Shown here: piece by piece, positions 3,891 to 14,401 of the stretch | Layout of the letters: each line of letters begins with the position of its first letter | Numbering within the stretch: the first letter of the stretch is position 1 | NCBI GenBank assembly: GCA_029210625.1 | Contig: JARGFU010000027.1 | Coordinates: 1 to 64,000 of the forward strand | Source: Deltaproteobacteria bacterium | GTDB lineage: Bacteria; Myxococcota; Myxococcia; SLRQ01 | Length of the DNA stretch: 64,000 bases | Direction: 5' to 3' | The notes under the pieces: generated by a model | Told to the model about the DNA's origin: nothing | The model's input: only the letters and a program-made list of their open reading frames with translations | The model's database searches: none | Translations under genes and position numbers: made by a program

Positions 3891-4259
3891 ATGTTGAAGT
3901 CCGATCTCGTACACGTTCTCGTGGAAAAACGAGGGATTACCCAGAAGCAGGCCGAGCAGGCTGTCGAGGTGATCTTCGAGACCATGCGGGACGCCCTCTG
4001 TGGTGGCGAAAACATTGAAATCAGGGGCTTTGGTGCCTTCCACGTGAAGCACTACAAGGGCTACCAGGGGCGTAACCCCAAGACCGGTGAGGTGATTCCG
4101 GTCGCCCCCAAACGCGGCATCCTCTTCCGCACCGGCAAGGAGCTGCGCGAGCGGATCAACCTCCTCCTCGAGGAGGAGCTCCGGGCCGCGCGCGGTGAGC
4201 AGGCTCAGGCCGCAGGCGCCGGCGCGATGAGCGACGAGCCGGGCCACCCCGGCGACTGA
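3891..4259 (+). CDS. HU/IHF family DNA-bending protein
   Basis: A nucleoid-associated protein of the HU/IHF fold. Residues 1-97 match the family from end to end: helix-turn-helix dimerisation part ('GITQKQAEQAVEVIFETM'), 'IRGFGAF', and the DNA-binding arm with the intercalating proline in 'GRNPKTGE', then 'FRTGKELRERIN'. It is closer to IHF subunits than to canonical HU in 'HYKGYQGRNPKTGE'. After the core comes an unusual tail of about 26 residues rich in Ala, Gly and acidic residues. The coding region of that tail overlaps the 3' end of the convergent sctV gene by 55 bp. The ATG start is supported by the family N-terminus. The subunit partner is unknown. Confidence 0.92.
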   Translation: MLKSDLVHVLVEKRGITQKQAEQAVEVIFETMRDALCGGENIEIRGFGAFHVKHYKGYQGRNPKTGEVIPVAPKRGILFRTGKELRERINLLLEEELRAARGEQAQAAGAGAMSDEPGHPGD

Positions 4260-6355
4260 TCGATCCGGCCTCCCGGATCGAGCAAGGCCACACCCTCAAA
4301 GGGGTCGAGCTGCGCCCGGGATCCGGAGGGGAGCTCGAGGCGGCCGAGGGGTCGCAGGGGGAGCTCGGCCGGGAGCTCGCCGTAGGCGAGCACCTCGATC
4401 CGGGGTCCGCCCGCCGGGCGAGCCCGCAGGAGGCGCGAGAGGGCCGAGCGCAGCTCCTCCGGGGCGAGCAGGGCGACGGGGCGGGCGCCGGCGAGGCGCT
4501 CCACGCCCTCCCGGAGTGCGGTCTGCTCCTCGGGATCGAGGGCCAGGACCGGGGCGTCCTCCAGCCGGGCGAGGGCGCCCCGCAGCCGGGCGTCGGTGAG
4601 CGGATCGAGGAGGAGGCAGGGGAGCGCCCCCGCCTCGAGGAGGGGCTGCACCAGCTGTCGCCCCAGGGCTCGCCGGGCGACCTCGATGCCCTCGCCGAGC
4701 AGGCGCTCGGGCTCGACCAGGAGGAGCGCCTCGAGCAGGCGATCGAGGGGACGCAGGGGGACGCCCTCCTCGAGGAGGAGCTGCAGGACGCGGTGGAGGA
4801 GCGAGGGGCCCAGCCGCGCGCGCACCTCCTCGACGAGGGAGGGGGCCTCGCCCTCCAGGTGATCGATGAGGGCAGCGGTGTGCTGCAGGGTCAGCCACTC
4901 GCCGGCGCTGTCCGCGAGCGCGCTCTGGAGCGCGCTGACCAGGAGCCGATCGGGGGTGAGGGGGTGCAGGCCGCAGCGTCGCGCCAGCGCCTCGGCGCCG
5001 GCCTCGAGCTCGAGCGCAGCCTGGCCCCGGTGCTCGATCTCGCGTCCGTCGATGCCCAGCAGCCGGGCCTCGTCCCGCCGCAGCGGGAGGACCGCGCGCT
5101 CGGGGAGGACTCCCTCGGCGAGGAGCGCGCCGTGGAGCAGCAGCCGGTAGCGGCCCGCCGCTCCCTCGCGCAGCAGGAGGGGCGGGGGCGCCAGGCCGAG
5201 GCGGGCCTGGAGGGCGCGGCGCAGCTCTCCCGGGAGCGCCTCGTGGTCCCCGGCCGCGGTGTCCCCCAGCTCGAGCACCAGCGCCCGGGAGGCGGCCGCG
5301 CGTGGGCTCGCCGGGAGGACGGCGCCGGGAGGGGGCGCGGATCCCGGCGCGGCGGCGCGGGGCTCGGGTAGCTCGCCGTCCGGATCGAGCTCGCGGTCGC
5401 GGTCCTTGCGCCGGTAGGCGAAGCGCGCGGCGGCGCCGAGGGTGAGGGACGAGAGGAGGAAGGGGAGGAGCGGGAGCCCCGGGACGAGGCCCAGGACGAC
5501 GAGGACGGTGGCGGCCAGGGCGAGGGCCCGCGGGTCGTCGACGAGCTGCCGCACGAGCTCACCGGCCGAGCCCCCCTCGCCCCCCTGGCGGGCCACGCGG
5601 GTGACGACGACGCCCGCCGCGACGGAAGCCAGGAGGGCCGGGAGCTGGGAGACCAGGCCGTCCCCGATGGAGAGGAGCGTGAAGTGCGCGGCCGCCTCAC
5701 CGGGGGAGAGGCCGTGGATCCCCACGCCCACCGCGAGGCCGCCCACGACGTTGATGAGCGTGATCAGGAGCCCGGCGATCGCGTCGCCCTTCACGAACTT
5801 CATGGCGCCGTCCAGGGCACCGTAGAAGCGGCTCTCCTCCTCCAGCTGCGCCCGGCGGCGGGCACCCTCGGCCTGGCTGCAACCACCGCTGCGCAGGTCG
5901 GCGTCGATGGAGAGCTGCTTGCCGGGCAGCCCGTCGAGGGTGAAGCGCGCGCCCACCTCGGCGACCCGCTCGGCGCCGCGCGCCACCACCACCAGCTGCA
6001 CCACCGTGAGGATGGCGAAGACCACCGCGCCGACGATGTGCGAGCCCCCGACGACGAAGGCCCCGAAGGCCTCGATGATCTGTCCGGCCTCGCCGCGGCC
6101 GAGGATCTGCCGGGTCGAGGAGACGTTCAGGGCGAGGCGGAAGAGGGTGGAGATCAACAGGAGCGTGGGGAAGGACGAGAGGCGGAGGGGATCATGGAGG
6201 AGGAGGGCGGTCGCGAGGAGGAGGAGCGCCAGGCCGAGGTTGAGGGTGAGCAGGAGATCGAGGAGCAGGAGCGGGAGCGGAATCAGGAGGCTGCCGACGA
6301 CGAAGAGCACGCCCAGGGCAGCGAGGAGATCGAGGAGCGGCGAGGGGTTCTTCAT
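4205..6355 (-). CDS. sctV: Type III export gate protein SctV (FlhA family)
   Basis: The largest export-apparatus component, forming the nonameric cytoplasmic gate that receives chaperone-substrate complexes. The 716 residues fit the family. Residues about 1-320 hold the hydrophobic segments, with the FHIPEP signature around 'RLALNVSSTRQIL', the conserved 'VKGDAIAG' loop and the stretch 'SIGDGLVSQLPALL'. The remainder is the cytoplasmic domain, longer and more Ala/Leu/Arg-rich than in enterobacterial homologues. The ATG at 6355 overlaps the sctU stop (ATGA). The last codons overlap the convergent HU gene. Both flagellar FlhA and SctV are possible by family; the neighbouring SctI and SctJ genes argue for SctV. 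Confidence 0.93.
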   Translation of the reverse strand: MKNPSPLLDLLAALGVLFVVGSLLIPLPLLLLDLLLTLNLGLALLLLATALLLHDPLRLSSFPTLLLISTLFRLALNVSSTRQILGRGEAGQIIEAFGAFVVGGSHIVGAVVFAILTVVQLVVVARGAERVAEVGARFTLDGLPGKQLSIDADLRSGGCSQAEGARRRAQLEEESRFYGALDGAMKFVKGDAIAGLLITLINVVGGLAVGVGIHGLSPGEAAAHFTLLSIGDGLVSQLPALLASVAAGVVVTRVARQGGEGGSAGELVRQLVDDPRALALAATVLVVLGLVPGLPLLPFLLSSLTLGAAARFAYRRKDRDRELDPDGELPEPRAAAPGSAPPPGAVLPASPRAAASRALVLELGDTAAGDHEALPGELRRALQARLGLAPPPLLLREGAAGRYRLLLHGALLAEGVLPERAVLPLRRDEARLLGIDGREIEHRGQAALELEAGAEALARRCGLHPLTPDRLLVSALQSALADSAGEWLTLQHTAALIDHLEGEAPSLVEEVRARLGPSLLHRVLQLLLEEGVPLRPLDRLLEALLLVEPERLLGEGIEVARRALGRQLVQPLLEAGALPCLLLDPLTDARLRGALARLEDAPVLALDPEEQTALREGVERLAGARPVALLAPEELRSALSRLLRARPAGGPRIEVLAYGELPAELPLRPLGRLELPSGSRAQLDPFEGVALLDPGGRIDQSPGWPGSSLIAPAPAA

Positions 6356-7434
6356 CGAGGGGCTCCGGGAGGCGAGGGGGCGGGGGCTTTCCGTTCGCCG
6401 CCGCCAGGGGGCGGCGCGAGGCCGGCGCGGTAGACGCTGGAGAGGAGCGCGGCGACCGGGGCGAAGAGCTCGGCGGGGATCTCCTCCCCGGGATCGAGGC
6501 GCATGAGCGCGCGGGCGAGGTGCCGGTCGCGGAGCATCGGGACGCGGGCCCGGCGCGCCTCGGCCCGCACGCGGGCGGCGGCCAGGCCGGTGGCCCGGCG
6601 TCCGAGGTAGGGGAGGGCGTCCAGGTGATCGTGGTGGATCGCGACGGCGAGGTGGGTCGGGTTCAGGACGACGACCTTGGCCTCGCCCAGGGGCGGCGCG
6701 GGGGCGAGCGTCATCTGCCGGTGCCGGCCCCGGCGCTCCTGCCGGGCCCGGGGGTCGCCGGTGTCCTGGCGCGCCTCCTCGCGCAGCTCTCGATCGCTCA
6801 TGCGCAGCGAGACCTGGTGGCGATGCCGGCGCCAGAGGGTGTCGCCGAGCGCCGAGAGGGCCGCGAGCCCGAGGCCCGTCCACAGGAGGGGCCGGGCGAG
6901 CCCGGGCAGGAGGCCGAGGGCCGGGACCTCGCCGCCGAGGCGCGGCAGGGCTGCGAGGGTGGGGAGCTGCGCGGCGAAGACGCGCCCGAAGAGGGGAAGG
7001 GCGAGGAGGACGAGGAGCAGCCCCCGCAGCGGCCCCGCCAGGCGATCGAGGCCGAAGAGGCGCCGCCAGCCGGCGGCCGGGGAGAGGCGCTCGAGGCGGG
7101 GGCGCAGGGCGTGGAGGCCGAGGTGGCCGCCGCTCTGAGCGAGCCCCGCGAGCCACCCACCGAGCCCGAGGAGCGCGAGCCAGGGGAGGAGCAGCGCGAG
7201 GAGGGTCGAGGCCGCCTGCGCCAGCGCCGCCGCGGGGTCGCACTCCTCGGAGAGGAGGAGGGGCCAGAGCGCGGCGATCCGGCGGCCGGCCGGCGCCAAC
7301 CCCGGGCCGAGGATCATGAGGAGGGCGGCGACGCCGAGGAGGCCCGCGGGCTCGGGAGAGACGGGGACGCGGCCCTCCCGCCGGGCCTGGCGGAGGCGGC
7401 GCGCGCTGGGAGGGTGGCGGCGGGCCTCGCTCAC
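6352..7434 (-). CDS. sctU: Type III export switch protein SctU (FlhB family)
   Basis: A substrate-specificity switch protein of the export apparatus. It has four membrane segments in the first 210 residues, then a cytoplasmic domain with the self-cleavage motif NPTH in 'VVLNPTHLAVAI', which is intact, so auto-cleavage between N and P is expected. The N-terminus 'ARRHPPSARRLRQARREGRV' is the typical basic FlhB/SctU start. The GTG start overlaps the sctT stop (GTGA). Length 360 agrees with the family. It acts in the inner membrane next to SctV and SctR/S/T. Confidence 0.93.
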   Translation of the reverse strand: MSEARRHPPSARRLRQARREGRVPVSPEPAGLLGVAALLMILGPGLAPAGRRIAALWPLLLSEECDPAAALAQAASTLLALLLPWLALLGLGGWLAGLAQSGGHLGLHALRPRLERLSPAAGWRRLFGLDRLAGPLRGLLLVLLALPLFGRVFAAQLPTLAALPRLGGEVPALGLLPGLARPLLWTGLGLAALSALGDTLWRRHRHQVSLRMSDRELREEARQDTGDPRARQERRGRHRQMTLAPAPPLGEAKVVVLNPTHLAVAIHHDHLDALPYLGRRATGLAAARVRAEARRARVPMLRDRHLARALMRLDPGEEIPAELFAPVAALLSSVYRAGLAPPPGGGERKAPAPSPPGAPR

Positions 7435-8141
7435 CGGCCGCTCCCGAGGAGGAGGGGCTCGAGGCGCTCGAGCACCTCGGCGACGGCCGGGAGCAGCTCA
7501 CCCACGCTCAGCGCCGCGACCAGGGCGACGCCCAGCGACTTGAGCGGCTGACCGAGGAAGAAGAGCGGGAGGGCGGGGAGGAAGCGGCCGACGAGGCCGA
7601 GGGCGAGATCGAGGAGGAGGCTGGCGAGGAGGAAGGGCAGGGCCAGGGCCACCAGCGCTCCGAAGAAGAGGAGGCCCAGCTGCTGGAGGTCCGCGAGATC
7701 CAGGATCGGGAGATGCCGCATCGATCCGCCGCTGGCGAGGAGCCGGGCCGCCACCCGCAGGACGCGGTGGTCCAGCCCGGCGCTGCCGGCGCCGACGAGC
7801 AGGGCGAGCTCCAGGGCCAGCGCCAGCGGCGGCGCCCGCTCCCCGCCGGTCGAGGTGCCCGACCACTGCGAGGGCGTGCCGCGGCTCTGGGCGGCCACGC
7901 CGCCCACGCCCCGCAGCAGCGCGAAGGGGAGGTGGAGGGTCAGCCCGGCGGTGAGCCCCGCGGCGAAGGCCAGGCCGAGCTCGAGCGGCGCGGGCGGCGG
8001 GAGGGCGGGGTCGGCCAGGAGCGCCAGCCCGAGGGCCAGCGCGAGCCTCGCCGGCGCCGGGAGGTGGCGGCCACCGAAGAGCGGGACGATCCAGAGGAGG
8101 GGCGCCCAGAAGAGGAGGTCGCGCAGGACGGCCGGGCTCAT
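7431..8141 (-). CDS. sctT: Type III export apparatus protein SctT (FliR family)
   Basis: An inner-membrane export-gate subunit that joins SctR and SctS in the helical export channel. The 236-residue protein is hydrophobic almost throughout, with the FliR-type pattern 'LPFALLRGVGGVAAQSRGT' in the middle (conserved in FliR/SctT as a G-x-x-x-x-x-QxG region) and 'VALALPFLLASLLLDLALG' in the last third. ATG overlaps the sctS stop (ATGA), and its own stop overlaps the sctU start. Position between sctS and sctU is the universal order. Confidence 0.9.
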   Translation of the reverse strand: MSPAVLRDLLFWAPLLWIVPLFGGRHLPAPARLALALGLALLADPALPPPAPLELGLAFAAGLTAGLTLHLPFALLRGVGGVAAQSRGTPSQWSGTSTGGERAPPLALALELALLVGAGSAGLDHRVLRVAARLLASGGSMRHLPILDLADLQQLGLLFFGALVALALPFLLASLLLDLALGLVGRFLPALPLFFLGQPLKSLGVALVAALSVGELLPAVAEVLERLEPLLLGSGR

Positions 8142-8407
8142 CGGAGGGTGGGCTCCGCGGCGAGGAGGAGGAGGTCGGTGGTCAGCCGGGCCAGCTCGTC
8201 GAAGGCCCAGGGGCCGGTGAGCCCGAGGGTGAGGCCGACCGCCAGCAGGCGCAGGGCGAGGGCGAGGGCCTGGTCCTGGATCTGGGTGATGGCCTGGGCG
8301 ACGCCCACCAGCAGGCCCATGAGCGCGGCGGCCAGCACCGGCGGCGCGGCCAGCGCGAGGGCGGCGTGCAGGGCCTGGGCGAGGAGCTCGGCGGGCAACG
8401 CGCTCAT
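8138..8407 (-). CDS. sctS: Type III export apparatus protein SctS (FliQ family)
   Basis: A small export-gate subunit, 89 residues, with two transmembrane hairpin helices. 'LMGLLVGVAQAITQIQDQAL' corresponds to the conserved FliQ loop (G-x-x-Q-A-x-T-Q-I-Q-E/D-Q-x-L), which is clearly present. Its start overlaps the sctR stop (ATGA), and its stop overlaps the sctT start. Length matches FliQ/SctS (86-90). Confidence 0.93.
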   Translation of the reverse strand: MSALPAELLAQALHAALALAAPPVLAAALMGLLVGVAQAITQIQDQALALALRLLAVGLTLGLTGPWAFDELARLTTDLLLLAAEPTLR

Positions 8408-9114
8408 GGCCCGAGCCCTCCGCCGGGGAGGTAGCCGCGCACGAGGGCCTCGGCCAGGAGCTGCCAGCCGTCCGTCGCCACGAAGAGGAGGAGCTTCAAG
8501 GGGAGGGAGACCGTGGTGGGCGAGAGCATGTGCATCCCGAGCGAGAGCGTCACCGCGCTGACCACGAGGTCGACCACGAGGAAGGGGAGGAAGAGGAGGA
8601 AGCCGATCCGGAAGGCCTCCCGCAGCTCGCCGAGGAGGAAGGCGGGGACGAGGATCCGCAGCGCGGGTGCCTCCCCGGGCGGGGTCGAGGTGCCCTCCGC
8701 GACGCCCTCGCCGCCGGCGGCGAGCTCGAGGAAGAGAAGTCGATCCTCGGGGCGGCTGTGGCGCAGGAGGAAGTCTCGCAGCGGTCCGGCCGCCGCATCG
8801 AGCCGCGCCTCGAAGGACGCGCCCGCGCGCGCGGCCTCGGCCTGGGCGGCGTGCGCTCGCTGGGCGACCGGGGCCATGACGAAGCAGGAGAGGAGCAAGG
8901 CCAGGGAGGTCAGGACCGTGGTCGGTGGGACCGTGGCGCTGCCGAGGGCCGAGCGCAGGATGCCCAGCACGACCGCCATCTTGGCGAAGGAGGTCACCAT
9001 GACCGCCAGGAAGGGCAGGAGGGAGAGGAGGGCGAGGAGGATGACGGTCTGGGGGATGTCGGCGGCGAGGCCGAACTCCGCCAGCTGCGTGGGATCGGGG
9101 AGGGTCGGGGTCAT
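8404..9114 (-). CDS. sctR: Type III export apparatus protein SctR (FliP family)
   Basis: The core export-gate subunit, five copies per channel in known systems. The N-terminal part holds 'LLALLSLLPFLAVMVTSFAK' and the FliP pattern 'VLGILRSALGSATVPPT'. The C-terminal half carries 'FRIGFLLFLPFLVVDLVVS' and 'SLGMHMLSPTTVSLPLKLLL', both diagnostic for FliP/SctR. No cleavable signal peptide is apparent, as in SctR rather than many FliP proteins. There are four ATGA-type overlaps in a row around it, so it sits inside a tightly coupled operon. Confidence 0.95.
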   Translation of the reverse strand: MTPTLPDPTQLAEFGLAADIPQTVILLALLSLLPFLAVMVTSFAKMAVVLGILRSALGSATVPPTTVLTSLALLLSCFVMAPVAQRAHAAQAEAARAGASFEARLDAAAGPLRDFLLRHSRPEDRLLFLELAAGGEGVAEGTSTPPGEAPALRILVPAFLLGELREAFRIGFLLFLPFLVVDLVVSAVTLSLGMHMLSPTTVSLPLKLLLFVATDGWQLLAEALVRGYLPGGGLGP

Positions 9115-9359
9115 GCCTCGCCTCCCGCTTCCCCGGAGGCTTCGGCCAGGCGGGTGAGGAGGCGAGGGGCCGGCTCACCCCAGCCGACGACCAGGTGCTC
9201 GCCCCGGAACTCCACCACGGCCAGCCCGACCCGGGGGGCGAGCTCGAGGCGCGCCCTGAGGGTGAGGTCGGGGCCCGCGGGGGCCTGGCGGCGGCGCTGC
9301 CAGTGGAGCAGGGCCGCCGCGGCGAGCACCAGGAGCCCGAGGGAGAGGAGCAGGCTCAT
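9111..9359 (-). CDS. FliO-like small membrane protein
   Basis: 82 residues: an N-terminal transmembrane helix (residues 2-19), a basic stop 'QRRRQ', then a small beta-rich domain ('LTLRARLELAPRVGLAVVEF') that ends in the polar tail. This is the layout of FliO, the flagellar assembly factor that helps FliP oligomerise, and the gene lies in the flagellar position between the fliM/N-type gene sctQ and fliP-type sctR. Most injectisomes have no FliO equivalent. Assignment rests on position, topology and the 'l-x-R-x-x-L/V-V' texture, not on a strong signature. Starts and stops overlap both neighbours. Confidence 0.6.
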   Translation of the reverse strand: MSLLLSLGLLVLAAAALLHWQRRRQAPAGPDLTLRARLELAPRVGLAVVEFRGEHLVVGWGEPAPRLLTRLAEASGEAGGEA

Positions 9360-10420
9360 CTCCGCCTCGCGGTGAGGCGCACGGCCAGCCGATCGTCGAG
9401 CTCGACGAGCTCGCCCCGGCCCAGGATCTCCTCGTCGACCACCAGCTCGACCTCGGGCGAGCGCAGGTCGAGGGGCAGGACGACGCCGGGGGCGAGCGCG
9501 GCGAGGGACTCGAGGTCGAGCGAGAGTCGACCGAGCCGCAGGTGCAGGTCGATGCGGAGGTCGTCGAGAGGGGTACCGGTCATGGAGGGGGTCTCCGGGT
9601 GCAGGTGGACAGGGGGGGCGAGGGCCTCGATCGCGAGGTGGTCCGGGCCGAGGCTCCCGCTCGCCGTCAGCCCGGGGGCGAGGCAGAGCTGGGCCGGACC
9701 GAGGAGCCGGCCCTCCACCCGACGGTGCTCGGCGTGGAGCAGGAGGTGGTCCCCGGGGCGCAGCCGGGCGAGCTCGGCGTAGGGCAGCGCGGTGCGGCCC
9801 AGCTCCAGGGCGACCCTGACCTGGCGAGGGCAGCCGGGGCGGGCGGCGAGCTCCACCGGCGGCGGGGGCAGCCCGCGGCAGAGCTCGAGCAGCGAGGGGT
9901 CGAGGCCCACCTCGACGGCGCCGGCGCGCTCGCCCCAGTGGAGGTCGAAGGAGAGGGTGTGGCGGGCGCACGCGGCGGGCCGGGCCGCGAGGGAGAGGTG
10001 GGGGCCCTCCTCCTCGGCCACGGCGGCGAGGAGGCCGAGGAGCCGGTGGAGGAAGAGCGCGCGCTCGAGCCGCCCCGGAGGGGAGCCGGGATCCGGGCGA
10101 GGCGTCCGGGCCACGCCCTCGTCCGCGCGCAGGAGGCCGGGCCCCACCACCAGGGAGGCGAGGGCGCCGGTCGCGCGGTGCTGGAGCGCCAGCTCCAGGC
10201 CGACGGTCCGGCCCGCCGGTCCGGGACGCGGCTCACGCAGGGCGAGGGGCTCGCCGAGCACCGCACCGGCCCGCGAGAGCTGCACCGCCAGCCACCCCGC
10301 CAGCCGGTTGGCGAGGAGCGCGTGCTCGAGGAGCAGCGAGTTCTCGTCCTCGACGCGGCGCAGCCGCAGGGGAGCGAGGCCGGGTTCGTGGCGAAGATCG
10401 CGGGTGATCGTGGCGTCCAT
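9356..10420 (-). CDS. sctQ: Cytoplasmic ring protein SctQ (FliM/FliN, SpoA domain)
   Basis: A sorting-platform or C-ring component. The last 75 residues form a SpoA/FliN domain ('PLDDLRIDLHLRLGRLSLDL', 'LDLRSPEVELVVDEEILGRG', 'RLAVRLTARRR'). The first 270 residues are divergent, Ala/Leu/Arg-rich, and correspond to the SctQ/FliM N-terminal region. Length 354 is that of HrcQ/YscQ. The ATG start has an AGAGAGG ribosome binding site. A 131-bp gap separates it from the upstream gene, the only real gap inside the cluster, and it contains a motif that also precedes the first gene of the cluster. Confidence 0.82.
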   Translation of the reverse strand: MDATITRDLRHEPGLAPLRLRRVEDENSLLLEHALLANRLAGWLAVQLSRAGAVLGEPLALREPRPGPAGRTVGLELALQHRATGALASLVVGPGLLRADEGVARTPRPDPGSPPGRLERALFLHRLLGLLAAVAEEEGPHLSLAARPAACARHTLSFDLHWGERAGAVEVGLDPSLLELCRGLPPPPVELAARPGCPRQVRVALELGRTALPYAELARLRPGDHLLLHAEHRRVEGRLLGPAQLCLAPGLTASGSLGPDHLAIEALAPPVHLHPETPSMTGTPLDDLRIDLHLRLGRLSLDLESLAALAPGVVLPLDLRSPEVELVVDEEILGRGELVELDDRLAVRLTARRR

Positions 10421-10433
10421 CGGCGGAGCCTCT

Positions 10434-10452
10434 CTCCAAGGGGCGTGCCACC
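10434..10452 (-). promoter_or_regulatory. Second copy of the 19-bp GGTGGCACGC-type motif, upstream of sctQ
   Basis: On the minus strand GGTGGCACGCCCCTTGGAG, 17 of 19 bases identical to the motif at 12346-12364. The core TGGCACG-N4-TTG resembles a sigma-54 promoter, but the -12 GC is GG here. The site ends only 13 bases before the sctQ ATG, so a sigma-54 start would leave almost no leader. A regulator binding site is an equal possibility. Confidence 0.45.
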
Positions 10453-10551
10453 TGCAGGAAGGCGCCCTCGAGGGTCTCCCGGGCAGCTGGAGCCTCTCGT
10501 GGTGGTCCGATCGCCGGCCATGCGTCCGCGAACCGGACCGACCGGCGGCGC

Positions 10552-10863
10552 TCAGCGAGGGGCGGCGCGCAGGAGCAGGGCGAGGTGGGGCGGCCGCCAG
10601 AGCAGGACGCGCTGATCGCTCCGGGAGAGGACCACCTCCGATCCGGGGGCACCCGAGGCCGACCCCTCCTCCCGGGAGGCCCGGACCAGCTGCGCCAGGG
10701 CGGCCAGCCGGCTGGCGCGATCGGCGCCGCCGGCGGGCGCCCGGGTGGGCGCGGGCGCGGGGGGCAGGTGAGCCTCCAGCCGGACCCAGGTGTCCGGTGC
10801 CAGGGCGAGCCCGACCGTCTCGAGGTCGGTCCGCCAGCGGGGCCTCGCGGCCGCGTCAGGCAT
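10552..10863 (-). CDS. Small unknown protein in T3SS cluster
   Basis: 103 residues between sctJ and sctQ. I do not recognise a domain. It begins with an acidic/basic mix ('RWRTDLETVGLALAPDTWV'), has a Pro/Ala linker in the middle and ends with 'SEVVLSRSDQRVLLWRPPHL'. There is no signal peptide or membrane helix. The ATG overlaps the sctJ stop by a few bases, so it is translationally coupled to sctJ. In other T3SS operons the genes after sctJ encode SctK or SctL, but the size is too small for either. It could be a lineage-specific platform or chaperone protein. Confidence 0.6.
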   Translation of the reverse strand: MPDAAARPRWRTDLETVGLALAPDTWVRLEAHLPPAPAPTRAPAGGADRASRLAALAQLVRASREEGSASGAPGSEVVLSRSDQRVLLWRPPHLALLLRAAPR

Positions 10864-11461
10864 CGGGGCCGGGCCTGCCGGAGGGGAGGGTCACCACCAC
10901 GACCTCGACGTGCTCGGGCTCGAGGCCGGCGACGGCGCCGGCGACCAGCGACCTCACCGCGCGGGTGTCCGCCTCGGTGGGGCTGGCGTCGGGGAGCACC
11001 CTCAGGAGGATCGATGCCTTCTCGATGGTGGGCTCCCGCTCGCGCCCCCCGCCGCCGAGGCCGGTCGCCGCGAGGTGGACCCGGGCGTCGATCACGCCGG
11101 GGAGGGTGAGCAGGGTCCGGGTGACCTCACCGGCGGCGCCGCGAACGAGGCGCACCTGCTCCTCGACCCGGGAGGGGACGAGCCCGCCGCCCTCGAGGGT
11201 GTCGTCCCAGCCCTCGGGCCGACGCCGGGGGAGCCCCGCGCGATCGAGGGCCGTCACTGCCTCCCGGAGCTTCGAGGCGGAGACCCGGATGTCGAAGCCC
11301 TCCCGGCTGCTCTCCTTCGTCGGCTCGAGGCCAGCGGCGTAGAGCACGGTCAGCGCGCGGTTGGCCTGCGCCTCGTCGGCGACCTGCAGCGCGCTGGCGT
11401 CGCAGCCGGTGAGCCCGAGGAGGACGAGGAGGGAGGCGGCGAGGTTCCGGGCGTGGCTCAT
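10856..11461 (-). CDS. sctJ: T3SS inner-ring lipoprotein SctJ (YscJ/FliF family)
   Basis: A basal-body ring lipoprotein in the periplasm. The signal peptide ends with the lipobox 'LTGC' at residues 17-20. The ring-building motif region follows: 'NRALTVLYAAGLEPTKES', then 'FDIRVSASKLREAVTALDRAGLPR', which is the YscJ/FliF consensus, and 'LLTLPGVIDARVHLA' with 'KASILLRV' in the second domain. The 201-residue protein ends shortly after the second domain, without the C-terminal transmembrane helix that YscJ often has. The lipobox and short length separate it from flagellar FliF (about 550 residues), and this is the best evidence that the cluster is an injectisome-type system. Start and stop overlap the neighbours. 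Confidence 0.92.
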   Translation of the reverse strand: MSHARNLAASLLVLLGLTGCDASALQVADEAQANRALTVLYAAGLEPTKESSREGFDIRVSASKLREAVTALDRAGLPRRRPEGWDDTLEGGGLVPSRVEEQVRLVRGAAGEVTRTLLTLPGVIDARVHLAATGLGGGGREREPTIEKASILLRVLPDASPTEADTRAVRSLVAGAVAGLEPEHVEVVVVTLPSGRPGPDA

Positions 11462-11889
11462 AGCTGGGTCCCCAGGAGCTGACGTGCCCCGCTGGAGGTG
11501 GACTCGACGACCTTCGAGAAGGTCTCGAGGATCAGGGTGCTGCGGTAGATGCGGGCCTGGAGCCCGATGAGCTCCTGGCTGGTGAAGGTGCGGCCGGCCC
11601 GCGCCTCGGAGATCAGGGCGTCGAGCGCCCGGCTTCCCTCGCGGGCTCCCCGGTAGAGGCGGGAGACGCTCTCGGTGGCGCCCGCATCCCCGACGGCCGC
11701 GAGGGGCGCGGAGCCTCCCGGGGCCACCGGGCCTGGCTCGACGGGCGGAGCGGGGATCCCGCCGGCCCGCTCCAGGTGGACCCGGAAGCGCTCCCCCGGG
11801 GGACCGTCGGTGGCCGGAGCGGCGGGGAGCCGGGGGGCCGCCCCGGTGAGGGGTGCGGACGAGGAGACGGCGCTGGTGACGATGGGCAC
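11458..11889 (-). CDS. sctI: Candidate inner-rod protein SctI
   Basis: 143 residues. A low-complexity Pro/Ala/Gly N-terminal part (to about residue 85) precedes a helical C-terminal part 'ELIGLQARIYRSTLILETFS', which then ends 'GARQLLGTQL'. Inner-rod proteins such as PrgJ and YscI end in the same pattern (EL...Q..I....L......S........GA..LL), as I remember those sequences. Its place directly before sctJ also matches prgJ-prgK and yscI-yscJ. It is expected to be secreted by the system and to build the rod or adapter below the needle. The stop overlaps the sctJ start (ATGA). Confidence 0.75.
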   Translation of the reverse strand: MPIVTSAVSSSAPLTGAAPRLPAAPATDGPPGERFRVHLERAGGIPAPPVEPGPVAPGGSAPLAAVGDAGATESVSRLYRGAREGSRALDALISEARAGRTFTSQELIGLQARIYRSTLILETFSKVVESTSSGARQLLGTQL

Positions 11890-11898
11890 GCGCTCCCC

Positions 11899-12309
11899 CT
11901 AGCGGATGTTGGCGATGGCGTTCTGAGCGGCCTCGTGCCGGGCCCGCATGATGTTGGAGAGCGCGGTGTAGGCCCGGGCCTCTCTGGCCATGCTCTCCTG
12001 CAGGGCCAGGTAGCGCAGGTTGAGCCCGCGGGAGCCGGACAGGAGCGACTCGAGCCCCGGGCTCTCGGCGGCCAGGCCACCGGCGGCCCCGGCGGTCCCG
12101 GCGCCGCGCGCACCGAGGAGGCGGGACATGCCGCCGAGGGCGAGGGAGATCAGCCCCGCGCCGGGCACGAGGGCGCCGGCGGCGCCGGCGACCTGCGAGG
12201 CGACGTCGAGGCCCCGCGAGATCCGGCCCCGGAAGGTGCTGCCGGGGAGGGCCGCCGAGGGCGCGGCGGGGGAGGGCGAGGAGAGGGCGGTGGGGAAGTC
12301 GAGGGACAT
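11899..12309 (-). CDS. Candidate needle-like protein (SctF-like C-terminus), first gene of T3SS cluster
   Basis: 136 residues. Residues 1-95 are Ala/Gly/Leu-rich, with a hydrophobic stretch ('LVPGAGLISLALGGMSRLLG'). The last 34 residues, from 'LQESMAREARAYTALSNI' to the end 'NAIANIR', are amphipathic helix. They can be laid on the C-terminus of YscF without gaps (from memory: shared L, Q, S, Y, S, I, R, Q), and the end resembles the 'SN...NFR' end of PrgI and MxiH. Gene order needle-rod-ring lipoprotein fits prgI-prgJ-prgK. Against it: needle proteins are about 80 residues and lack such an N-terminal extension. ATG at 12309 with a GGAG site; a sigma-54-like motif lies 37-55 bases upstream. 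Confidence 0.6.
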   Translation of the reverse strand: MSLDFPTALSSPSPAAPSAALPGSTFRGRISRGLDVASQVAGAAGALVPGAGLISLALGGMSRLLGARGAGTAGAAGGLAAESPGLESLLSGSRGLNLRYLALQESMAREARAYTALSNIMRARHEAAQNAIANIR

Positions 12310-12345
12310 GTCCGGGCTCCGGGGTTCGGGGTCGCCGGCCGCCAG

Positions 12346-12364
12346 CTACAAGGCGCGTGCCACC
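12346..12364 (-). promoter_or_regulatory. Sigma-54-like promoter upstream of the T3SS cluster
   Basis: On the minus strand GGTGGCACGCGCCTTGTAG: TGGCACG, four bases, TTGTA. This matches the sigma-54 consensus TGGCACG-N4-TTGCA except for one base at the -12 C. Predicted start near 12335, about 26 bases ahead of the ATG at 12309, which leaves room for the GGAG ribosome binding site. The same 19-bp sequence recurs with two changes upstream of sctQ. Confidence 0.5.
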
Positions 12365-12469: not shown

Positions 12470-13453
12470 CTACTTCCTCCGGGTGAGCGGGACCTCGGCG
12501 GCCCGGTTGCCGCCGGCGTCCTGGGCGATGGCGACTGCGTCGGTGGCCTCCCGGATCATCTGGGCGAAGGAGACGTCACCCTTCCCCCGGTAGACCGCGA
12601 TGCCGATGCTGGCGGTGGTGCCGGCGCTGCCCTCGATGAGGGTGAGGCGGGTCTTGGCGACTCGCCGCCGGATGCGCTCGGCCGCGGAGCGGGCGCCCCG
12701 GTGGCCGGTGTGAGGCAGGACCGCCAGGATGTGTCCGGGCCCGAGATCGACGGCGATGTCCTGATCGCGGAGCGCCCGGGAGACCGCCAGCCGCAGGCCG
12801 CCCTCCAGGGTCTCGACCATCTCGGCACCGTGGGCCAGCTCCACCTCGGCCAGGGAGTCGAAGGCGACGCGCAGGAGGGTGAAGGGGATCCCGTAGCGTC
12901 GGGCGCGCTTGAGCTCGGCCGCCAGCAGCGGCTTGAAGTGCTCGAAGCGGTAGAGGTGGGTGCGCGGATCGACCGGCGCGGCGGCCTCCTCCAGGCTGGC
13001 GGCGGCCTTGCCGGCGGCCTGCCGCTCCCGGTGGGCCGCCACCATCTGCGCCAGCGCCCAGGCGGTCAGCCCGAGGGCGCGCAGGGGCACCGGCCGGGCG
13101 AGGGCCCCCTGGGCGCCGAGGCGCTCGGCCTCGCTCTCCATCTCGACCACGTCCGAGCCCTTCGGGAAGATCGTGAGGAGGGCCGGGCGGGGCTCGGGCA
13201 GGGTCTCGAGGGCGAGGGAGACCTGCTCGGCCTCGAAGCCCTCGGTGACGGAGAGGACCACGACCTCGATCGCGTCCTCGCCGTGCGCCTCGAGGAGGGC
13301 GACGGCCTCCTCGATCTCGGCGCAGCCCCTCGCCGTCAGCCCCGCCTCCTCGAGGGCCTCGATGCTCCGGCCCAGCGCCCCCCGGTTGGGCTCGACGATC
13401 AATGACACCGGTGCGGCGGCCGGCGGCTCCTTCTCCTGGCGGTCGTTGCTCAT
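12470..13453 (-). CDS. Degenerate receiver-like plus degenerate GGDEF protein
   Basis: 327 residues. Residues about 15-130 have a receiver-like alternation ('VSLIVEPNRGALGRSIEALE') without the acidic pair or phosphoacceptor. Residues 160-325 follow the GGDEF fold ('THLYRFEHFKPLLAAELKRA', 'ASIGIAVYRGKGDVSFAQMI'), but the signature is 'LGPGHILAVLPHT', so GGDEF has become GPGHI and no diguanylate cyclase activity is expected. It may bind a partner or act as a c-di-GMP or protein sensor. It lies four bases downstream of a similar gene (13457-14401), so the two are probably co-transcribed and may form a heterodimer. Its stop is 160 bp from the T3SS start. Confidence 0.72.
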   Translation of the reverse strand: MSNDRQEKEPPAAAPVSLIVEPNRGALGRSIEALEEAGLTARGCAEIEEAVALLEAHGEDAIEVVVLSVTEGFEAEQVSLALETLPEPRPALLTIFPKGSDVVEMESEAERLGAQGALARPVPLRALGLTAWALAQMVAAHRERQAAGKAAASLEEAAAPVDPRTHLYRFEHFKPLLAAELKRARRYGIPFTLLRVAFDSLAEVELAHGAEMVETLEGGLRLAVSRALRDQDIAVDLGPGHILAVLPHTGHRGARSAAERIRRRVAKTRLTLIEGSAGTTASIGIAVYRGKGDVSFAQMIREATDAVAIAQDAGGNRAAEVPLTRRK

Positions 13454-13456
13454 GCT

Positions 13457-14401
13457 CTAGTAGACGATCCTGTTCCCGCCCCGCTCGAGGGCGAAGCGCA
13501 GCGCCGCGCTCGAGGCCTTGATCAGGCCCGCGAAGCTCATGCGCTCGGAGGGACGGCTGGCGGAGAGCCCCACCGAGAGGGTGGGGGTGAAGGTGGTGCC
13601 GCCGGCCTGGATCCGGCTGCGCTTGATCACGGAGCGGATGCGCTTGCCCACGGCGACGGCTCCCTCGAGGGAGGTGTGGGGCATGAGGATCAGGATGTTC
13701 TGGCGGCCGTAGGAGACCGGGAGGTCGGTGTCTCGCAGGGAGCGCCGGACGGCGAGGGCGAGACCGCCGTAGAGCTCGTCGAGGATGGCGTCCTGATCCG
13801 GCGCCGCGGCCTTGATCTCCTCGAGGCGCGGCGGGTCGTAGCTCATCAGGAGCACGGCGAGGGGGTAGTCGTAGCGGCGCGCCCGCTTCACCTCCACGTA
13901 GAGCGCCTCCTTGAAGTAGGCGAAGGTGTAGAAGCCGGTGCGCGCCTCGCGGACGCTGCTCTCCTCCCGCAGCTCGGCGGGGGCGCGGCCCGGGCGGCCC
14001 GCGATGGCCGCCATCTCGCCCTTGAGCTGACGGATGAGCGCCATCGAGCGGACGCAGGTGAGGAGCTCTCGCCGCTTGAGCGGCCGGACGAGGTAGTTCT
14101 CGGCGCCCACCTTCCGGCAGTGGGTCACCGCCGCGCGATCCTCACGGGAGAAGAGCAGGACGCAGGGGATGGTCGGATCGAAGACCTCCTTGACGTGCTG
14201 CACCAGGCTGTACCCATCCCCGCCGGGCAGGCGGGCGCCGGTGAGGACGATGTCCGGCTCGAAGGTCTTCAGCTCCCGCCGGGCGGCGGCCAGCGAGCGG
14301 GCGAGCTGGACCCGGTAGCCGTCCCGGGCGAGCAGATCACGGGTGCTTTCCAGAAAGCGCGGGTTCCGGTCCGCCACTAGGATCTTCTCCCGCCTCCGCA
14401 T
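13457..14401 (-). CDS. Pseudo-receiver plus degenerate GGDEF protein
   Basis: 314 residues with a clear receiver domain (1-125: 'KILVADRNPRFLESTRDLLA') followed by a GGDEF fold (150-314). The phosphoacceptor position reads 'DIVLTGARLPGGDGY', where Asp is replaced by Gly. The conserved Lys is Arg ('YLVRPLKRREL'), and the first acidic pair is DR. The GGDEF signature is 'YGRQNILILMPHT'. So neither phosphorylation nor cyclase activity is expected. The layout resembles PleD-like and myxobacterial ActA-type regulators with worn active sites. ATG start. It sits divergent from the surface-protein gene at 14741 across 339 bp. Confidence 0.75.
   Translation of the reverse strand: MRRREKILVADRNPRFLESTRDLLARDGYRVQLARSLAAARRELKTFEPDIVLTGARLPGGDGYSLVQHVKEVFDPTIPCVLLFSREDRAAVTHCRKVGAENYLVRPLKRRELLTCVRSMALIRQLKGEMAAIAGRPGRAPAELREESSVREARTGFYTFAYFKEALYVEVKRARRYDYPLAVLLMSYDPPRLEEIKAAAPDQDAILDELYGGLALAVRRSLRDTDLPVSYGRQNILILMPHTSLEGAVAVGKRIRSVIKRSRIQAGGTTFTPTLSVGLSASRPSERMSFAGLIKASSAALRFALERGGNRIVY

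What the first reader, a model, noticed from the sequence alone, without database searches (positions are those of the whole stretch)
4205..12364. Flagellum-like, secretin-less type III secretion core of the early-branching kind
The cluster has injectisome-only parts (lipoprotein SctJ, SctI, a needle candidate) in front of a strictly flagellar gene order (sctQ, FliO-like, sctR, S, T, U, V). A FliO-like gene is a flagellar trait. ATPase, stator, SctD and secretin are missing, and the neighbours on both sides are unrelated. From the literature (Abby and Rocha 2012) I recall that myxococcal T3SS branch first from the flagellum and lack a secretin; this cluster fits and seems to keep FliO. How such a system crosses the outer membrane, if it does, is not known.
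Basis: partly seen in the sequence, partly recalled or inferred. Interest (0 to 1): 0.75.

Follow-up and report, generated by a model that had tools for sequence, protein, structure and literature searches.

The report
Myxobacterial short type III exporter
This is the early-branching, secretin-free 'short' type III export machine of myxobacteria, already known since 2012; new here are that its ATPase genes sit elsewhere in the genome and that its first gene, and genes of the supposedly needleless predation system, are relatives of needle subunits.

Summary
An intact, overlapping minus-strand operon (12309-4205) encodes orf136-SctI-SctJ-orf103-SctQ-FliO-like-SctR-S-T-U-V. It is the 'short' Myxo non-flagellar T3SS of Abby & Rocha (2012). 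The same operon lies beside HU/YihY genes in about 30 Myxococcia genomes. In a SctV tree it forms one clade (98/98) and branches before all other non-flagellar T3SS (95/92), although a joint clade with T3SS* is not excluded (AU p 0.127). FliO in both M. xanthus systems was published in 2025.

Corrections: ATPase and stator are not missing. A sctL-sctN-sctO trio lies on another contig. In three Myxococcaceae genomes that kept only the short locus, sctL and sctN (plus sctO where seen) survive at the site where the T3SS* locus was lost. No flagellum, no recognisable SctD. The three secretins belong to type IV pili, T2SS and a Tad system.

New: the first gene family carries an SctF-like C-terminal helix. 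A profile of needle subunits from other phyla retrieves only this family, T3SS* relatives and SctI among 1421 Myxococcia proteins. The 'needleless' T3SS* also encodes needle-family proteins, two above Pfam's cut-off, and a FliG_C protein. The exit through the outer membrane stays unknown.

The parts
11899..12309 (-). orf136: SctF-like needle/filament subunit candidate (first gene; C-terminal helix residues ~86-135 is the needle-like part)
   Evidence: Orthologue family A1 in 26 genomes; family HMM and certified-SctF HMM cross-hit; Pfam needle families are the top three by number of members hit; the window protein alone has no Pfam hit
11458..11889 (-). sctI, inner rod
   Evidence: Family A2: 15 of 20 members hit PF17001, best 3e-5; the window member alone has no hit
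10856..11461 (-). sctJ, inner-ring lipoprotein with lipobox LLGLTGC; ends without the C-terminal TM helix that orthologues have
   Evidence: TIGR02544 2e-32, PF01514 5e-20; comparison with L042/L048
10552..10863 (-). orf103: small helical protein at the FliG/SctK place; FliG-like fold suspected
   Evidence: Family A3/A6; AF2 of the L048 orthologue pLDDT 84; Foldseek list dominated by FliG but no significant E; hhalign to the T3SS* FliG_C protein 34%, E 4e-4
9356..10420 (-). sctQ, C-ring / sorting platform
   Evidence: PF01052 4e-18, TIGR02551 2e-23
9111..9359 (-). fliO-like
   Evidence: TIGR03500 2.5e-7, PF04347 20.5 bits against a cut-off of 22; conserved between sctQ and sctR in the class
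8404..9114 (-). sctR
   Evidence: PF00813 1e-64; NF009438 over cut-off
8138..8407 (-). sctS
   Evidence: position and phmmer hits to orthologues
7431..8141 (-). sctT
   Evidence: PF01311 1e-21
6352..7434 (-). sctU with NPTH autocleavage motif
   Evidence: PF01312 1e-59; sequence VVLNPTHLAVAI
4205..6355 (-). sctV
   Evidence: PF00771 5e-168, TIGR01399 5e-161; trees
3891..4259 (+). HU/IHF-like gene, converging on sctV: conserved neighbour, a synteny marker and not part of the machine
   Evidence: same neighbour in L042, L048, L054 and others

Best explanation
The cluster is the vertically inherited 'short' Myxo non-flagellar T3SS. Its export gate (SctRSTUV, FliO-assisted), SctJ ring, SctI rod and SctQ platform are encoded here. 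Its motor part (SctL-SctN-SctO) is encoded at a second locus (G000:C20), and together they form one ATPase-driven exporter in the inner membrane. Its first-gene product, with an SctF-like C-terminal helix, is most likely the early substrate that stacks on SctI as a short rod or needle in the periplasm or beyond. There is no dedicated secretin or SctD, so any release from the cell must use another exit; borrowing of the Tad secretin, by analogy with T3SS*/Kil of M. xanthus, is the most plausible. Shown by sequence: gene content, orthology, phylogeny, synteny, absence of flagella and of a spare secretin, SctF-like homology of the family. Inferred: assembly into one machine, needle function, export of substrates, outer-membrane exit.
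For: Operon and family hits. Same 11-gene order next to HU-YihY in about 30 Myxococcia genomes. One SctV gene in the genome. Second locus sctL-N-O, syntenic as its own trio in Anaeromyxobacter-like genomes. Natural deletions: G010, G132 and G136 have only the short SctV and lack the T3SS* genes at the T3SS* site, but keep sctL and sctN there, with sctO in G010 and in part in G132. Purifying selection on nearly all genes in five species pairs; dN/dS of orf136 0.18-0.46, of orf103 up to 0.70. Tree and AU tests. Needle-family evidence.
Against: The window's lineage evolves fast: SctV end branch 1.2-1.4, SctJ lacks its C-terminal TM, FliO-like is the shorter form, and orf136 and SctI have no Pfam hit on their own. 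The SctF-like match covers only about 36-60 residues, and hhalign gives 74%, not 95%. No SctP ruler, tip, translocon or chaperone was found in the cluster. A secreted substrate is unknown. In M. xanthus the second T3SS is reported not to take part in prey killing (PMC12403147, citing Thiery 2022, not read).
Confidence: 0.78

Rival explanations
1. The cluster is a decaying relic of a flagellum or injectisome, kept by chance.
For: Fast lineage, SctJ and FliO shortened, no secretin or SctD. Abby & Rocha report that earlier annotators called the M. xanthus loci relics (PMC3459982).
Against: All frames intact and coupled; conserved order across the class; dN/dS well below 1 for nearly all genes; sctL/sctN kept when T3SS* was lost in three genera.
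Confidence: 0.08
2. The export gate serves only inner-membrane or periplasmic export, for example a CORE complex for nanotube-like structures, with no needle at all; orf136 is a regulator or another secreted protein.
For: No outer-membrane channel; FliO-P-Q-R-FlhB-FlhA is the set named CORE in nanotube work (own knowledge); orf136 has a long disordered N-terminal half.
Against: Injectisome-type SctJ lipoprotein and SctI are conserved; the first gene is SctF-like and stands directly before sctI-sctJ, as in prgI-J-K (order recalled).
Confidence: 0.2
3. orf136 belongs to the SctF/tip superfamily but acts as tip filament, gatekeeper or second rod rather than needle subunit.
For: Longer than needles (130-190 aa); needle-like HMMs also hit 200-250 aa proteins of other T3SS loci such as Bordetella L289; T3SS* has separate 71-74 aa needle-family genes besides its orf136 homologue.
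Against: It is the only needle-family gene of the short locus and stands in the needle gene's place.
Confidence: 0.3
4. Short and long (T3SS*) loci are sister groups, as in the 2012 tree, rather than the short type branching alone.
For: AU test does not reject it, p 0.127, lnL difference 8.9.
Against: Free tree: all other NF-T3SS without the short clade 95/92; long type groups with injectisomes 99/97.
Confidence: 0.3

Closest known systems
'Short' Myxo NF-T3SS locus of Cystobacterineae (Abby & Rocha 2012, PMC3459982)
   Same: Export gate, SctJ, SctI, no secretin, no large inner ring, conserved gene order, early branch
   Different: Published description gives no SctF, no FliG and does not name FliO; here an SctF-like first gene, a possible FliG-like gene and FliO are present, and the ATPase trio is at a separate locus
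T3SS* ('needleless' long locus, mxan_2434-2464) of M. xanthus (PMC12075869, PMC10433427)
   Same: FliO, SctI/J, no secretin, flagellar order, a first gene homologous to orf136
   Different: Other SctV clade; long locus with own sctL-N-O, FliG_C protein, TPR chaperones and extra needle-family genes; this genome has no such locus
Bacterial flagellum export apparatus
   Same: Gene order Q-O-P-Q-R-FlhB-FlhA and FliO
   Different: Only one FHIPEP gene in the genome; SctJ is a lipoprotein, not FliF; SctV outside the flagella (AU p 0.004)
Canonical injectisomes (Ysc, SPI, Hrp families)
   Same: SctF-like/SctI/SctJ trio in front, SctRSTUV, SctQ, SctL-N-O
   Different: No secretin, no recognisable SctD, tip or translocon; FliO present; branches earlier

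Membership tests
Short Myxo NF-T3SS | SctRSTUV plus SctJ and SctI in conserved order | tested here: met
Short Myxo NF-T3SS | SctV in the short clade | tested here: met
   98/98 support with Myxococcus-, Anaeromyxobacter-like and other short loci
Short Myxo NF-T3SS | own ATPase present | tested here: met
   sctL-N-O on contig C20
Short Myxo NF-T3SS | no dedicated secretin | tested here: met
   three secretins, each in a T4P, T2SS or Tad operon
Short Myxo NF-T3SS | no large inner-ring protein SctD | tested here: inconclusive
   no hit over cut-off, but the family diverges fast
Short Myxo NF-T3SS | lacks SctF (as published) | tested here: not met
   SctF-like first gene; the published negative is an absence call, so the family definition rather than membership is in question
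T3SS* (long Myxo locus) | SctV in the long clade, sctN inside the cluster | tested here: not met
Flagellum | FlhA in the flagellar clade | tested here: not met
   AU p 0.004; a single FHIPEP gene
Canonical injectisome | secretin SctC | tested here: not met
T3SS_needle_F / SctF (for orf136) | score above the family's curated cut-off | tested here: not met
   window protein no hit; 8 of 26 orthologues below cut-off, best 0.017
T3SS_needle_F / SctF (for orf136) | C-terminal helix homologous to certified needle subunits | tested here: met
   short-family HMM finds L280 SctF 7.5e-6 (L280 itself PF09392 5e-15); needle-protein HMM finds the family; hhalign 74%
T3SS_needle_F / SctF (for orf136) | polymerises into a needle | not testable with these tools
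   experiment needed
FliO | FliO family score | tested here: inconclusive
   TIGR03500 E 2.5e-7 and PF04347 20.5 bits, both below curated cut-offs; position and orthologues agree
FliG (for orf103) | FliG domain homology | tested here: inconclusive
   weak:

The most novel reading that the evidence does not exclude
Neither myxobacterial T3SS is needleless: both begin with a gene for a diverged SctF-type subunit (T3SS* also has 71-74 aa and longer needle-family genes, and a FliG homologue). The short type is then a surviving intermediate between flagellum and injectisome: an ATPase-driven exporter with FliO, a needle and possibly a FliG-like part, but without secretin. It draws on a remote or T3SS*-encoded sctL-N-O set.
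Probability: 0.5. Interest if true: 0.75.

Novelty: new member of a known kind. Interest (0 to 1): 0.5.

Why it matters
The origin of injectisomes from the flagellum is inferred from these myxobacterial systems, and the 2012 scenario rests partly on their lacking SctF and FliG. If needle-family and FliG-family genes are present after all, the ancestral non-flagellar T3SS had a needle and a FliG-like part before any secretin. The M. xanthus predation T3SS* would also need re-reading as a needle-bearing system. The retained sctL/sctN genes in short-locus-only genomes give a direct genetic test of whether two T3SS share one ATPase.

Tried and rejected
Direct Pfam and NCBIfam scans of the window's orf136, SctI and orf103: no T3SS hit; homology became visible only through orthologue families. 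PDB profile searches with A1, A2 and the 71-aa T3SS* protein: only chance hits. AF2 of orf136: confident only for helix 86-135, and no Foldseek match. orf103 as FliG: not provable by sequence, since the A3 HMM does not hit FliG; left as suspected. SctD search: hits were FHA domains of regulators, a CpaC-like protein and an FHA-TPR protein. First tree with few references could not order short, long and injectisomes; broader sampling could. Thiery 2022 is not held, so the report of no predation role for the second M. xanthus T3SS is second-hand (PMC12403147). Rejected: horizontal acquisition (syntenic in the class; similar GC elsewhere in the window); a flagellum elsewhere in the genome.
Full report
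1. What is in the sequence. Between 12309 and 4205 on the minus strand lie eleven intact genes, nearly all overlapping at start/stop codons: orf136, sctI, sctJ, orf103, sctQ, a fliO-like gene, sctR, S, T, U, V. Profile searches confirm SctJ, Q, R, T, U, V and the FliO-like protein. SctU keeps NPTH; SctJ has a lipobox. SctI is recognised through its family (15 of 20 members hit T3SS_basalb_I).

2. The rest of the genome (G000, 6.1 Mb, 64 contigs, 98% complete). Only one SctV/FlhA-family gene exists, so there is no flagellum. An ATPase scoring 318 bits to FliI/YscN stands out from the F-type ATPases. Around it are a FliH/SctL-like and a FliJ/SctO-like gene, forming sctL-sctN-sctO on contig C20. 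The three secretins are PilQ with pilM-P, GspD with T2SS genes, and a CpaC-type secretin with a prepilin peptidase and FHA/CpaF-like genes. No SctD reaches the cut-off; the hits are FHA domains of regulators and other proteins.

3. Distribution and synteny. The same operon, in the same order and beside HU and YihY genes, is found in about 30 examined genomes of the class, among Myxococcus-like, Anaeromyxobacter-like and other families. In Anaeromyxobacter-like genomes sctL-N-O is also a separate trio, next to a sigma-factor gene. In a Myxococcus-like genome with both systems (G011), the only SctN-like ATPase is that of T3SS*. Genomes G010, G132 and G136 have only a short-type SctV. At the former T3SS* site, between the usual neighbours, they lack the T3SS* genes but retain sctL and sctN; sctO is clear in G010, partial in G132 and was not called in G136. 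I take this as a natural experiment indicating that the short system needs this motor set. Nearly all genes are under purifying selection.

4. Phylogeny. With wide sampling (named loci), the short clade is supported 98/98 and all other non-flagellar systems together 95/92. T3SS* and other Myxococcota systems group with the injectisomes (99/97). The window's SctV with the flagella is rejected (p 0.004), and short plus injectisomes alone is rejected (p 0.006). Short plus long as one clade is not rejected (p 0.127). The window row is a long branch, so its exact place within the short clade is less sure.

5. The first gene. orf136 orthologues share a C-terminal block...LQ..MQ.ESRE..a.SNiMKvrHDsAKaaInNIr. 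By number of members hit, the top three of 24736 Pfam families are all needle or pilus families (HrpF, T3SS_needle_F, HrpA_pilin), at weak E-values. A profile of the short family finds the 75-aa needle protein of a Magnetovibrio T3SS locus at 7.5e-6 among 9210 ORFs; that protein is certified by Pfam at 5e-15. A profile of nine needle proteins from other phyla (three of them checked against Pfam) finds, among 1421 Myxococcia proteins, this family, T3SS* needle-like proteins and then SctI; reversed decoys reach only 0.36. hhalign gives 74%, E 3e-5, in register to the C-terminus. The window's own protein is tied in through its family (2e-24) and the needle-like profile (5e-9). Circularity caveat: the needle-like profile set was itself collected with the Pfam needle model.

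6. T3SS* in passing. The long locus begins with a homologue of orf136 and carries further needle-family genes of 71-74 and 200-250 aa; in two genomes these pass Pfam's cut-off. Its gene after sctJ encodes a FliG_C protein (PF01706 5e-6, over cut-off; hhalign 96% to FliG). Published accounts call T3SS* needleless and without needle homologues (PMC10433427, PMC10849154, PMC12075869), and state that Myxo systems lack FliG (PMC3459982).

7. orf103 stands at the place of FliG/SctK. The AF2 model of the L048 orthologue is confident (pLDDT 84). Most Foldseek matches are FliG structures, but none is significant (best E 0.83). hhalign to the T3SS* FliG-like protein is 34%, E 4e-4. I call this suspected, not shown.

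8. How it probably works. Inferred: SctL-N-O unfolds substrates at SctQ; FliO helps to build SctR5S4T1; SctU/V select substrates; SctI and then orf136 are exported and stack on the SctJ-bounded gate as a rod or needle. The exit through the outer membrane is unknown. A Tad secretin exists in the genome, and in M. xanthus T3SS* works with a Tad-like apparatus (PMC12075869), so borrowing is plausible but untested.

9. Verdict. The system is a new family-level member of an already described kind, and FliO in it is no longer a surprise (PMC12403147). The added value lies in the remote ATPase trio, its retention where T3SS* was lost, the deepest branching of the short type, and the overlooked needle-family and FliG-family genes.

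Noticed in passing
L139:7710-8279; L162:1495-1710; L164:1459-1674; L047:5252-5476 and 7667-7891; L147:1495-2196; L148:1189-1929: T3SS* loci, published as needleless, encode several needle-family proteins; L147 and L148 pass the PF09392 cut-off. TPR chaperone-like genes lie beside them.
   Followed up: partly
L139:11436-13760; also L181:6623-8179, L185:2723-4375, L186:2699-4075: T3SS* gene after sctJ encodes a FliG_C-containing protein with a variable low-complexity tail.
   Followed up: yes
L139:16368-17282: Between sctO and sctQ of T3SS* lies a 304-aa protein in the place of FliK/SctP (length control); similarity judged by eye only.
   Followed up: no
L047:2599-2883; L190:4970-5260: T3SS* clusters carry a stand-alone second copy of the SctU C-terminal domain (about 95 aa) right after sctU.
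   Followed up: no
window 12470-13453 and 13457-14401 (-): Two response-regulator proteins with GGDEF-like C-terminal halves lie directly upstream of the T3SS operon on the same strand; Myxococcus-like L048 has a PilZ-like and a receiver-domain gene at this place. A c-di-GMP link is possible.
   Followed up: no
window 10856-11461 and 9111-9359: In this lineage SctJ lacks its C-terminal TM helix and FliO is reduced to about 82 aa, while orthologues keep longer forms.
   Followed up: partly
L184:9303-11501, L304:6464-8355, L305:22-2269: Three Myxococcaceae genomes lost T3SS* but kept sctL and sctN (with sctO in G010, partial in G132) at its site.
   Followed up: yes
L243, L284, L223, L233, L269, L232, L275, L279: Further Myxococcota, other delta-proteobacterial and one Nitrospira-labelled NF-T3SS fall between the short clade and the injectisomes in the SctV tree; their gene content was not examined.
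   Followed up: no
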